From assembly GCA_012960245.1 (NCBI GenBank), contig DUBO01000028.1, forward strand, positions 1 to 64,000: a stretch of 64,000 nt of DNA. Direction: 5' to 3'. The notes beneath the pieces were generated by a model. The model was not told the DNA's origin and did not search any database. It worked only from the letters and a program-made list of their open reading frames with translations. This document shows, one piece after another, positions 51,003 through 54,572 of the stretch; the stretch's first letter is position 1, and each line of letters opens with the position of its first letter. Position numbers and translations under genes: made by a program. Source of the stretch: Candidatus Binatota bacterium. Its GTDB lineage: Bacteria; Desulfobacterota; Binatia; UBA1149.

Positions 51003-52565
51003 ATGGGCGCTAAGAAAACAACTATGAAAAACAACATCGGGCTTTTCCTGGCCAAGCGTGCCGAACTCGACCCGGACCTCGAGGCCTTCGTGGGCCTGGA
51101 GTCGGGGCAGCGATTGACCTACCGCGAGTTCAACGAGCGCTCCTGCCGGACGGCCAATGCGCTCACCGGGCTCGGCGTAGGCAAGGGCGACCGCGTGGCG
51201 TTGCTGATGATGAACGGCGCCGAGTACATCGAGTCGTTCTTCGCTATCGCCAGGATAGGCGCCATCGTGGTGCCGCTTAACTGGCGACTGGTGGCCGACG
51301 AGCTGACGTTTATATTGTCGGACAGTGGCGCCACCGTGTTGTTGTTTGACGGTGAGTTTGCCGAGGTGGTGGCCGCGCTGCAGGGGCGACCCGACGCGAC
51401 GGCGGTGACCACCTGGGTGCAGGCGGGCGATGACCAACGAGCCGACTGGGCCTCGTCCTACGACGAGCTGCAGCAGTCCGCGTCGGCTGACGCTCCGGAA
51501 ACCGGCGGCGAGGACGAAGACGAACTTTACATAATGTACACCTCGGGTACGACCGGTTTACCCAAGGGGGCGGTACACACGCACGCGTCGGCCATGTGGG
51601 GGGCCTTGACGATAGCCGCTACCGCAGACATGCGTTACGCCGACCGTTACATGGTTACCCTGCCGTTGTTCCACGTCGGCGCGCTTACACCGATGCTTGT
51701 TAATGTCTACAAGGGTGGCACGAGCGTGGTAATGCGCGCGTTCGACCCGGTGCGAGCCTGGCAGGCCCTGGAAGAAGAAAAGATTGATAATATGCTGCTG
51801 GTGCCGGCGATGCTCAATTTCATGTTGCAGGTGCCCGACTTCGACAAGTACGACCGCAGCCGTCTGCGCTGGTGCATGAGCGGCGCCGCTCCGGTACCCG
51901 TCAACCTCATAGAGCGCTGCGCCGAGCTGGATATAGAAATCCAGCAGGTCTACGGCATGACCGAGTCCTGCGGGCCGGCTTGCCTGTTGACCTCGGCCGA
52001 TTCGCTGCGCAAGGCCGGGTCTACCGGCAAGGCCTTTTTTCACACCGACGTACGGGTAGTCGATGACAAGGGCGACGATGTAGCGCCCGGAGAAGCCGGG
52101 GAGGTATGGATACGGGGCGCCCACGTGATGAAAGAGTACTGGAACCGGCCCGAGGCCTCCGAGGAGACCCTGGCCGGTGGTTGGCTGCACTCGGGGGACA
52201 TCGCGACGATAGACGACGAGGGTTTTATATACATACAGGATCGAATGAAGGACATGATCATTTCGGGCGGTGAGAACGTGTACCCCGCCGAGATAGAAAA
52301 CGTGTTGCTCGACTGCGACGGCGTGGCCGACGCTGCGGTCATCGGCCAGCCCAGCGAGAAGTGGGGCGAATCGCCGGTGGCCGTGCTGGTGGGTTCGGCC
52401 GGCCCGGTAGATCCCGGCACAGTGCTTGAGCACTGCAAGACCCGGCTGGCCGCCTTCAAGAGACCGGTGGCTGTTGAGATGGTCGAAGAAATTCCCCGCA
52501 ACCCTTCGGGTAAGATACTCAAACGCATACTGCGCGAGCGCTACCCCGGACCTGCGCCCGCCTGA
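51003..52565 (+). CDS. Long-chain-type acyl-CoA ligase (AMP-binding)
   Basis: A 520-residue ANL-superfamily ligase. The ATP-binding P-loop IMYTSGTTGLPKGAVHTHAS, YGMTESCG, GWLHSGDIATIDDEGFIYIQDRMKDMI and the C-terminal IPRNPSGKILKRILR (catalytic Lys) are all present. It activates a carboxylic acid to the acyl-adenylate and then the CoA ester. ATG 51003 is followed by an in-frame ATG at 51024, either possible. It lies next to the MarR gene and may be under its control, though the MarR boxes are downstream of it. Confidence 0.93.
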   Translation: MGAKKTTMKNNIGLFLAKRAELDPDLEAFVGLESGQRLTYREFNERSCRTANALTGLGVGKGDRVALLMMNGAEYIESFFAIARIGAIVVPLNWRLVADELTFILSDSGATVLLFDGEFAEVVAALQGRPDATAVTTWVQAGDDQRADWASSYDELQQSASADAPETGGEDEDELYIMYTSGTTGLPKGAVHTHASAMWGALTIAATADMRYADRYMVTLPLFHVGALTPMLVNVYKGGTSVVMRAFDPVRAWQALEEEKIDNMLLVPAMLNFMLQVPDFDKYDRSRLRWCMSGAAPVPVNLIERCAELDIEIQQVYGMTESCGPACLLTSADSLRKAGSTGKAFFHTDVRVVDDKGDDVAPGEAGEVWIRGAHVMKEYWNRPEASEETLAGGWLHSGDIATIDDEGFIYIQDRMKDMIISGGENVYPAEIENVLLDCDGVADAAVIGQPSEKWGESPVAVLVGSAGPVDPGTVLEHCKTRLAAFKRPVAVEMVEEIPRNPSGKILKRILRERYPGPAPA

Positions 52566-52630: not shown

Positions 52631-52642
52631 GTGCATATGCAC
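52631..52642. promoter_or_regulatory. MarR box A
   Basis: GTGCATATGCAC, a perfect 12-bp palindrome, between the ligase and the marR gene. It belongs to a set of four related boxes (consensus GTGyATATrCAC) flanking the marR gene. It lies 37 bases ahead of box B. Confidence 0.7.
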
Positions 52643-52659
52643 TTGTTTGTAAAAAGGGG

Positions 52660-52691
52660 TTGACGCTTCCCCGTATAATGTGTATATACAC
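52660..52691 (+). promoter_or_regulatory. marR promoter with MarR box B in the -10 region
   Basis: TTGACG (52660-52665) and TATATA (52683-52688) are 17 bases apart. The -10 lies inside GTGTATATACAC (52680-52691), a perfect 12-bp palindrome. A TATAAT at 52674-52679 could serve instead. Either start point would be within about 10 bases of the ATG at 52696, so the message has almost no leader, and no Shine-Dalgarno sequence is seen. Autorepression is implied. Confidence 0.65.
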
Positions 52692-52695
52692 AGAC

Positions 52696-53166
52696 ATGGG
52701 AAGGGGCTCTGAAAAGACCAGCGCTGGCGACAGCGGCAGTGGAAAGGACAGCGGATGTGCGTGCTTCAACATACGCCGTGCGGCCAGGGCTGTTACCCGC
52801 CTTTACGACGACACAATCAGGTCCACAGGGCTCAGATCTTCGCAGGTTATGCTGCTTATGGGCGTGCGTGCCATGGGCCCGGTAAGCGTGGGCAACCTGG
52901 CCGAGGAAGCCGTGCTTGACCGCACTACGCTTACCCGAAATCTGCGCCCACTGGAGCGCGAAGGACTGGTTCGCATAGAGCAGGGCGTGGACAGGCGCGA
53001 GCGGGTGGTAAGTCTTACCGCCAAGGGAGACAGCAGGCTCAAGGTGGCGATGCCGGTGATGCGCAAGGCGCAACAGAAGGTGGAGGAATTGGTGGGGGGC
53101 AACTGCGTTTCCCGGGTCATAGAGGATCTGGGGCGTTTGGTGGGTGCTACCAGGACGAGGGCGTAA
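52696..53166 (+). CDS. MarR family transcriptional regulator
   Basis: A 156-residue MarR protein. An N-terminal Ser/Gly-rich tail is followed by CACFNIRRAARAVTRLYDDTIRSTGLRSSQVMLLMGV, then the winged helix VGNLAEEAVLDRTTLTRNLRPLEREGLVRIEQGVDRRERVVSLTAKG. The two Cys near the start (GCACFN) are in a spot often used for oxidant or ligand sensing. It starts at ATG 52696 with a very short leader. Palindromic boxes lie in its own promoter and in the promoter of the next gene, so it probably represses both. Confidence 0.92.
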   Translation: MGRGSEKTSAGDSGSGKDSGCACFNIRRAARAVTRLYDDTIRSTGLRSSQVMLLMGVRAMGPVSVGNLAEEAVLDRTTLTRNLRPLEREGLVRIEQGVDRRERVVSLTAKGDSRLKVAMPVMRKAQQKVEELVGGNCVSRVIEDLGRLVGATRTRA

Positions 53167-53185
53167 AGGAAGTCCTTTTTTTTGC

Positions 53186-53222
53186 TTGACAAGGTGTATA
53201 TGCACCTTATGTATGTACACAT
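53186..53222 (+). promoter_or_regulatory. Promoter of the small peptide gene with MarR boxes C and D
   Basis: TTGACA (53186-53191, exact consensus) and TATGTA/ATGTAT (53208-53214) are 16-17 bases apart. Box C, GTGTATATGCAC (53194-53205), fills the spacer; box D, ATGTATGTACAC (53209-53220), is a 10/12 match and covers the -10. Bound MarR would cover the whole core promoter. Confidence 0.68.
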
Positions 53223-53248
53223 AGATTGATTACGGAGAGGCCGGGACG

Positions 53249-53503
53249 ATGACTGGAACTGAGAACAACGGAGATAATACGATGAATATCAACTCAAATG
53301 GATGCGCAGTAGCAAACCTGGCCCAAGGGGCCTTCGCGGGCTGGGACGAAGACAGCGAAGACCTGGTCGCGAGATCGGCCCGGACCGGCGGAGTCGTAGG
53401 GTCGGCGGTGGGTAGCGCGGTAGGAAGAGCGTTGCCGGCGTTGGTGGCTAGTGGAGGTTTCGCCCTGGCGGTCTTCCTGCCCCTGATCCTGGCCTTCGCA
53501 TGA
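53249..53503 (+). CDS. Small glycine-zipper membrane peptide, MarR-controlled
   Basis: An 84-residue protein, or 73 if ATG 53282 is used; both starts have a GGAGA-type ribosome site. The N-terminal half is polar and acidic (AGWDEDSEDLVARS). The C-terminal half is a glycine-zipper helix (G48-VV-G51-SAV-G55-SAV-G59) followed by a hydrophobic stretch (GGFALAVFLPLILAFA) that should insert in the membrane. A Gly-Gly at residues 47-48 resembles a bacteriocin leader cleavage site, but no exporter or immunity gene is adjacent. I do not recognise the family. It has its own promoter with two MarR boxes. Confidence 0.65.
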   Translation: MTGTENNGDNTMNINSNGCAVANLAQGAFAGWDEDSEDLVARSARTGGVVGSAVGSAVGRALPALVASGGFALAVFLPLILAFA

Positions 53504-53660
53504 GCTGTCGGGAGGGCAGCAAAGAAACGGGCGGCGATCGCCAGCGCAACATCGGTGGTCGCGCCCGCCTGGGCCAGGAGCCCGCCGCTGGACAAGCCCG
53601 AGGCCACGCTCGGCGGCGACCAGGGGCATGCCCGGTAACCACGCCGAACCCTGCAGTCGG

Positions 53661-54572
53661 TTAGTCCTTGCCGCTGCTTTTGCGCGCCGCCGGGGTTTCC
53701 TGGAGGTAGCGCTCCATGAGTTCCCGGTGCTCACCGGCCTCGCGCTCGCGCAGTTCCCAGAACCTGGGCGAGCGACGGCCGTCCATGAAAGCCACGCCGC
53801 CTTCCTTGCCCTCGGGCGAGTCAAACCAGTCGGGGTACATTGACGAAGATATAGCCCCCATCTCCTGGTAGCCGTCCATCTCCTGGTCGAAGGCCGCCTT
53901 GAGCACCTCGAGGCATCCGGGACTCAAGGCCAGCAGTTCCTCTGCCCAGCGGTCGACCGCGGCCTCGAGATCACCGACCGGCACCACCTCGTTGACCAGC
54001 CCCATGCGTTCGGCTTCCTCCGCGGTGTACTTGCGACACAGCATCCACATTTCGCGTGCCTTCTTGGCGCCTATGACCTTGGTGAGGTAGGGGACGAAAA
54101 ACCCATCGGCCGGGCTCGACACGCGCGGGCCCGCTTGGCCGAACTTTGCCGTGTCGGCGGCGATGGTGAAGTCGCAGCAGTAGGCCATGTGGTTGTGTCC
54201 GCCCAGGCAGTAGCCCTGTACCTGGGCCAGCACCGGTTTGCGTGAATTGCGCACCAGGCGGTTGTGGGGGTAGCGAAAATAGAAACCCTTGCGCAGCCCC
54301 CAGGTCTCCCACTCCACGTCGCCGCCGGTACCGAAGTTCTTGCCTGCGCCGGCCACCACGATCAGGCCGATCGATGTGTCGTGGTTGGCATCGTAAAACG
54401 CGCGGAACATCTGTTCTACGGTTTCCAGGGTCATCACGTTGTACTTGTCGGGCTTGTTCAGCGTGACCCGTGCAATGCCTCCGCCTAGTTTAGCGTGGTG
54501 TTTCTTCTCGTAGACGATTTCGTCAAAGACGAGCCCGTCGCCGTTTACCTGCTGCCAATCGCTCCAACTCAT
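53661..54572 (-). CDS. Crotonase-fold enzyme (enoyl-CoA hydratase/ring-opening hydrolase-like)
   Basis: A 303-residue crotonase-superfamily protein. Oxyanion-hole regions are YNVMTLETVEQM with GTGGDVEWE, and QGYCLGGHNHMAYCCDFTIAADTAKFGQAG. The GAGKNFGTGGD pattern and length resemble MenB/BadI-like enzymes that close or open rings as well as simple hydratases. It is on the minus strand, with its start 89 bases from KstR-type box 4, and is divergent from the molybdenum hydroxylase operon. Ring cleavage is a plausible role but is inference. Confidence 0.85.
   Translation of the reverse strand: MSWSDWQQVNGDGLVFDEIVYEKKHHAKLGGGIARVTLNKPDKYNVMTLETVEQMFRAFYDANHDTSIGLIVVAGAGKNFGTGGDVEWETWGLRKGFYFRYPHNRLVRNSRKPVLAQVQGYCLGGHNHMAYCCDFTIAADTAKFGQAGPRVSSPADGFFVPYLTKVIGAKKAREMWMLCRKYTAEEAERMGLVNEVVPVGDLEAAVDRWAEELLALSPGCLEVLKAAFDQEMDGYQEMGAISSSMYPDWFDSPEGKEGGVAFMDGRRSPRFWELREREAGEHRELMERYLQETPAARKSSGKD

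What the first reader, a model, noticed from the sequence alone, without database searches (positions are those of the whole stretch)
52631..53503. MarR circuit with four near-identical boxes and a small glycine-zipper peptide
Boxes GTGCATATGCAC, GTGTATATACAC, GTGTATATGCAC and ATGTATGTACAC lie in the promoters of the marR gene and of an 84-residue peptide gene. In the second promoter one box fills the 17-base spacer and another covers the -10; TTGACA is exact. The peptide has an acidic head and a membrane-inserting glycine zipper and resembles no family I know. This could be a pore-forming, toxin-like or membrane stress peptide held off by MarR.
Basis: partly seen in the sequence, partly recalled or inferred. 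Interest (0 to 1): 0.75.

Follow-up and report, generated by a model that had tools for sequence, protein, structure and literature searches.

The report
MarR switch controlling an orphan membrane peptide
A bacterial gene switch that probably senses oxidation by two neighbouring cysteines appears to control only itself and one small, genus-specific membrane peptide; the switch is a known kind, but what the peptide does is unknown.

Summary
Three near-perfect palindromes GTGYATATRCAC and one degenerate copy lie in the promoters of a marR gene and of an 84-codon ORF. They are the only such palindromes in the 2.8 Mb genome, and are unchanged in a sister species. Fourteen of 17 related MarR loci from other genera carry the same operator kind beside marR (about 0.06 expected), so the boxes are very probably this regulator's own operators. 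The MarR is nearest in sequence to M. tuberculosis MosR and keeps its N-terminal Cys-x-Cys redox pair. In relatives the linked genes include molybdopterin oxidoreductases, a DsbA-like protein and a 135-aa membrane protein; in this genus the gene is an orphan peptide. The peptide ORF has coding-like codon usage in its frame only, a GxxxGxxxG motif and a C-terminal hydrophobic tail. It was found in no other genus. marR and peptide are present together in two species and both absent from the third, at the same site. Most likely: an oxidation-relieved, autoregulated switch with one other target, a tail-anchored membrane peptide. Pore or toxin activity is neither supported nor excluded. Codon substitutions alone do not prove the peptide is selected as protein (dN/dS about 0.7).

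The parts
52631..52642 (.). operator box 1, GTGCATATGCAC, 17 bp upstream of the marR -35
   Evidence: perfect palindrome; unchanged in sister species
52660..52688 (+). marR promoter: TTGACG, 17 nt, TATATA lying inside box 2; ATG about at +1
   Evidence: both elements unchanged in sister; the alternative TATAAT at 52674 is TAGAAC there; TTGAC-spacer-box-ATG layout recurs in homologues. Inference, no transcript data
52680..52691 (.). operator box 2, GTGTATATACAC, over the -10 and just before the marR start codon
52696..53166 (+). marR gene, 156 aa, MarR/MosR-like with Cys21-Ala-Cys23
   Evidence: Pfam MarR E 1.8e-07; best solved relative 4fx0/4fx4, E 6.6e-20, CAC aligned to CAC
53186..53214 (+). 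peptide promoter: exact TTGACA, 17-nt spacer filled by box 3, weak -10 under box 4
   Evidence: unchanged in sister
53194..53205 (.). operator box 3, GTGTATATGCAC, core of an 18-bp near-palindrome AAGGTGTATATGCACCTT
53209..53220 (.). operator box 4, ATGTATGTACAC, degenerate (4 of 6 pairs)
   Evidence: unchanged in sister
53249..53503 (+). peptide gene, 84 aa (or 73 aa from the ATG at 53282): acidic head, GxxxGxxxG, hydrophobic C-terminal tail
   Evidence: 85% identical in sister; only frame with positive coding score; no family match
53500..53565 (+). start of a possible second coupled ORF (ATGA overlap), MSCREGSKETGGDRQRNIGGRA, conserved, then diverging abruptly
   Evidence: 2 changes in 66 nt, both synonymous; in-frame coding score positive for this part only; no relatives outside genus

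Best explanation
A self-contained regulatory cassette of about 1 kb. A MosR-like MarR with an N-terminal Cys-x-Cys pair represses its own leaderless promoter (box 2 over the -10, box 1 upstream) and the promoter of one neighbouring gene (boxes 3 and 4 over the spacer and -10). When the cysteine pair is oxidised, or another signal is bound, the repressor leaves the DNA and a small peptide is made. The peptide has a soluble acidic head and a C-terminal hydrophobic helix preceded by a glycine-zipper motif, and most likely sits tail-anchored in the inner membrane as an oligomer or as partner of another membrane protein, acting as a stress peptide. Shown by comparison: the operator assignment, the two-promoter regulon, restriction of the peptide to the genus, joint presence and absence with marR. 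Inferred from the family: repression and relief by oxidation. Inferred from sequence only: membrane insertion and the stress role.
For: Strict box only here in the genome. Promoters and all four boxes unchanged in the sister while surrounding DNA is about 8% diverged. Same operator class next to marR in 14 of 17 homologous loci from other genera, upstream 11 and downstream 4, one locus both, versus 0.03 and 0.04 expected. CxC aligned to MosR, whose Cys10-Cys12 disulphide is linked to release from DNA (PMC5823404). marR plus peptide present in two species; the third has the flanking genes side by side without them and has no box. Peptide frame is the only positive codon-usage frame in both species, at a level like marR's (0.12 and 0.15 per codon). 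GxxxGxxxG kept while the single Arg moves from 60 to 56, same helix face.
Against: Codon-level selection on the peptide is not demonstrated: 5 synonymous and 9 non-synonymous changes after codon 12, dN/dS about 0.67, and other frames give similar ratios. Structure model is poor (pLDDT 60, pTM 0.26) and has no fold match. Only two sequences of the peptide are known. The signal and the peptide's function are untested. The third species' assembly is 86% complete, though the syntenic junction itself is present on one contig.
Confidence: 0.55

Rival explanations
1. The peptide is a membrane-permeabilising, self-limiting toxin or pore-former kept off by MarR, in the manner of small stress-induced membrane toxins such as TisB under LexA.
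For: Tight double-operator promoter on a small ORF with glycine zipper and hydrophobic tail; accessory, genus-restricted presence.
Against: No match to toxin, holin or bacteriocin families; no antitoxin gene; double-glycine export leader does not fit (Arg at -4 and -7, GG becomes GA in sister); 73-84 aa with a long soluble head is unlike the very short type I toxins (own knowledge).
Confidence: 0.15
2. The operator-bearing promoter survives from a cassette whose original target was lost; the ORF downstream is a degenerate or newly arisen reading frame under weak selection.
For: In relatives the gene beside this MarR is usually a molybdopterin oxidoreductase, or a DsbA-like or 135-aa membrane protein; this genus has the oxidoreductase elsewhere without a box in front; dN/dS about 0.7; no relatives of the peptide; a truncated-looking coupled ORF follows.
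Against: Promoter unchanged, frame kept without indels or stops, start sites and hydrophobic tail kept in both species; codon usage positive only in this frame; no DNA similarity to other genes of the order.
Confidence: 0.2
3. The MarR is a ligand-responsive regulator of the adjacent acyl-CoA ligase/enoyl-CoA hydratase/molybdenum hydroxylase genes and the peptide is incidental.
For: Cassette lies between an AMP-dependent ligase and an enoyl-CoA hydratase; many MarR proteins sense aromatic acids or their CoA esters (own knowledge).
Against: No boxes at those genes; the third species has the same ligase and hydratase genes without marR.
Confidence: 0.1

Closest known systems
MosR (Rv1049) of Mycobacterium tuberculosis, PDB 4fx0/4fx4
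   Same: MarR fold; best solved relative by far (75 bits versus 35 for the next); Cys-x-Cys at the start of helix 1; controls another gene
   Different: MosR controls a secreted oxidoreductase (PMC5823404); here the neighbour is an orphan peptide. Whether the cysteines react here, and MosR's operator sequence, were not checked
CxC MarR genes of the same class (loci L006-L019, L050)
   Same: 36-50% identical; CxC in most; operator NTGYAnnTRCAN directly before the start codon, leaderless layout, TTGAC -35
   Different: Linked to molybdopterin oxidoreductases, a DsbA-like protein or a 135-aa membrane protein; often TTGTAnnTACAA and one operon rather than two promoters
Small stress-induced membrane peptides (TisB type) and small membrane partners (AcrZ, MgtS type)
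   Same: Short hydrophobic product under a stress regulator (resemblance recalled, not tested)
   Different: No sequence relation found; larger soluble head; no antisense RNA or known partner
Glycine-zipper domain families (Pfam, NCBIfam YiaD type)
   Same: GxxxGxxxG motif
   Different: No significant match (NCBIfam E 0.087, 12.5 bits against cut-off 175; Pfam none)

Membership tests
MarR family | winged-helix MarR domain above curated cut-off | tested here: met
   PF01047 31.3 bits against 24.6
MosR-like redox MarR | closest solved structure is MosR, with aligned N-terminal Cys-x-Cys | tested here: met
   E 6.6e-20; query GCACF over ECACY; CxC in most homologues
MosR-like redox MarR | reversible disulphide that releases DNA | not testable with these tools
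   needs purified protein
MarR autoregulation | palindromic operators overlapping its own promoter, conserved in relatives | tested here: met
   binding itself not tested
Double-glycine bacteriocin/microcin | LSxxELxxIxGG-type leader and GG | tested here: not met
   Arg at -4 and -7; GG is GA in the sister; export genes not searched
Known small membrane toxin, holin or glycine-zipper family | profile match | tested here: not met
   Pfam none, NCBIfam best 0.087, PHROGs best 0.22
Pore-forming or toxic peptide | membrane insertion and growth inhibition | not testable with these tools
   hydrophobic C-terminal tail only (mean hydropathy 2.3-2.5 over 19 residues)

The most novel reading that the evidence does not exclude
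A redox-sensing MosR-type MarR has been rewired in one genus to a single output, a previously undescribed tail-anchored glycine-zipper peptide (perhaps with a second translationally coupled small peptide), forming a compact oxidative-stress membrane module.
Probability: 0.3. Interest if true: 0.6.

Novelty: new variant of a known kind. Interest (0 to 1): 0.42.

Why it matters
It ties a class-wide operator code (NTGYAnnTRCAN just before a leaderless marR) to a Cys-x-Cys MarR subfamily, which makes targets predictable in poorly cultured lineages, and shows how the gene under a conserved redox switch can differ between genera. If the peptide is real and membrane-active it would be a minimal redox-gated membrane effector with a one-target regulon, easy to test.

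Tried and rejected
Peptide relatives: 98 relatives, 395 genomes of the phylum, GTDB contigs, viral contigs, plasmids and phages gave only the sister species. A weak hit in G005 (L003) lies inside an unrelated long reading frame that reads like a ketoacyl-ACP synthase, so it was dropped; a weak G375 hit (E 4.8e-4, inside a 380-aa frame) was not followed. dN/dS to prove coding: inconclusive, since the region is unusually little diverged (dS 0.09 against 0.37-0.48 in the ligase and marR), perhaps through recombination between the species. Structure model and Foldseek: uninformative. Downstream RNA fold: no more stable than shuffles (z -0.81), so no RNA element claimed. Double-glycine bacteriocin: leader does not fit. 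TATAAT of marR as the -10: rejected by spacing and non-conservation.

Full report
Observation. Three fit GTGYATRTRCAC exactly; the fourth differs at one base of that pattern and pairs at 4 of 6 positions. First-order expectation for the looser pattern is about 0.02 in the window and 0.0002 in 600 bp. The strict form GTGYATATRCAC occurs in the own genome only at these three places, with no match to the reversed control, and TTGAC followed by the box core occurs exactly at the two promoters. The regulon readable from sequence is therefore marR and the peptide gene.

Promoters. At the peptide gene TTGACA is exact, box 3 fills the 17-nt spacer and box 4 lies where the -10 should be, though the -10 is weak. 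At marR, the eye-catching TATAAT is 8 nt from TTGACG and is TAGAAC in the sister species; the conserved reading is TTGACG-17-TATATA with the -10 inside box 2 and the start codon about at +1. The same layout, TTGAC, spacer, palindrome, start codon within about 10 nt, recurs at many homologous marR genes.

Whose operators? Related MarR genes (most 36-50% identical) were collected from the order and class. Of 17 loci outside the genus, 11 carry NTGYAnnTRCAN (at least 5 of 6 pairs) upstream of marR, where simulated sequences gave 0.03, and 4 carry it within 150 nt downstream, where 0.04 is expected; 14 loci have at least one. Two flavours appear: GTGYATATRCAC (or CTGCATAYRCAG) in the closer homologues, TTGTAnnTACAA in the rest. 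This is phylogenetic footprinting of this MarR subfamily's operator. Binding is not shown.

The regulator. Pfam gives MarR. The best solved relative is 4fx0/4fx4, MosR of M. tuberculosis, E 6.6e-20, with CAC of the query over CAC of MosR. For MosR the literature describes a Cys10-Cys12 disulphide in helix 1, release from DNA by oxidants and induction of a secreted oxidoreductase (PMC5823404). CxC is kept in most homologues here. Redox sensing is thus the leading guess for the signal, by family and not by test.

What the operators control elsewhere. Several homologues are followed directly by a molybdopterin oxidoreductase; in G075 the box stands between marR and such a gene; in G003 before a DsbA-like gene; in G017 before a 135-aa membrane protein without a Pfam match. 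The window's genus keeps the oxidoreductase elsewhere, without a box in front. So the gene beside this regulator varies, and in this genus it is the peptide.

The peptide. 84 codons, or 73 from a second ATG with its own Shine-Dalgarno sequence; in the sister 4 of the first 11 residues differ, so the shorter form is plausible. Head net charge from residue 12 is -3 in both species; GxxxGxxxG at 51-59 is kept; the one Arg in the zipper moves from 60 to 56, one helix turn along the same face; the last 20 residues are strongly hydrophobic and end at the stop. Codon usage is positive only in this frame in both species, weak like that of marR itself, against a median 0.38 for neighbouring genes; both genes therefore look atypical for the genome. 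dN/dS is about 0.67 after codon 12 and does not by itself prove selection. No family, phage, plasmid, viral or phylum-wide relative was found. The AlphaFold model is low-confidence with a long C-terminal helix.

Presence and absence. Of three species in the genus, two have marR plus peptide. In the third the ligase and enoyl-CoA hydratase genes are side by side with about 240 bp between them, no marR, no peptide and no box. The pair behaves as one cassette and is not needed by the catabolic genes around it.

Judgement. The regulatory half is well supported as a new member of a MosR-like MarR group. The effector half is a genuine orphan with modest evidence for being a protein and none yet for its function. 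The toxin or pore reading remains possible but has no specific support.

Noticed in passing
window 53500-53664: Second small ORF starting at the ATGA of the peptide stop; first 22 codons nearly unchanged in the sister (only two synonymous changes), then both species diverge abruptly into different tails. May be a coupled second peptide or a gene cut off at the cassette edge.
   Followed up: partly
L035 about 1270-1400 (third species, between ligase and enoyl-CoA hydratase): In place of the cassette, a short open stretch directly after the ligase stop would encode AAAAFTGSGLGLAGVLLWVAAATLGWFFLSFFTAAATAYPG, like the tail of an unrelated membrane protein; found nowhere else. Perhaps a deletion scar.
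   Followed up: partly
L009 (G004), around 1330-1425 on the minus strand: Operator plus TTGAC-like element after marR is followed within about 80 nt by a terminator-like hairpin with T run and no obvious gene; could be a small RNA or the relic of a lost target.
   Followed up: partly
window 51003-52565: Divergence from the sister species is strongly mosaic along the ligase gene (0-3 versus 17-20 changes per 60 bp), suggesting recombination.
   Followed up: no
L008 2007-2414 (G017): 135-aa membrane protein without Pfam match downstream of a homologous MarR with box CTGCATATGCAG.
   Followed up: partly
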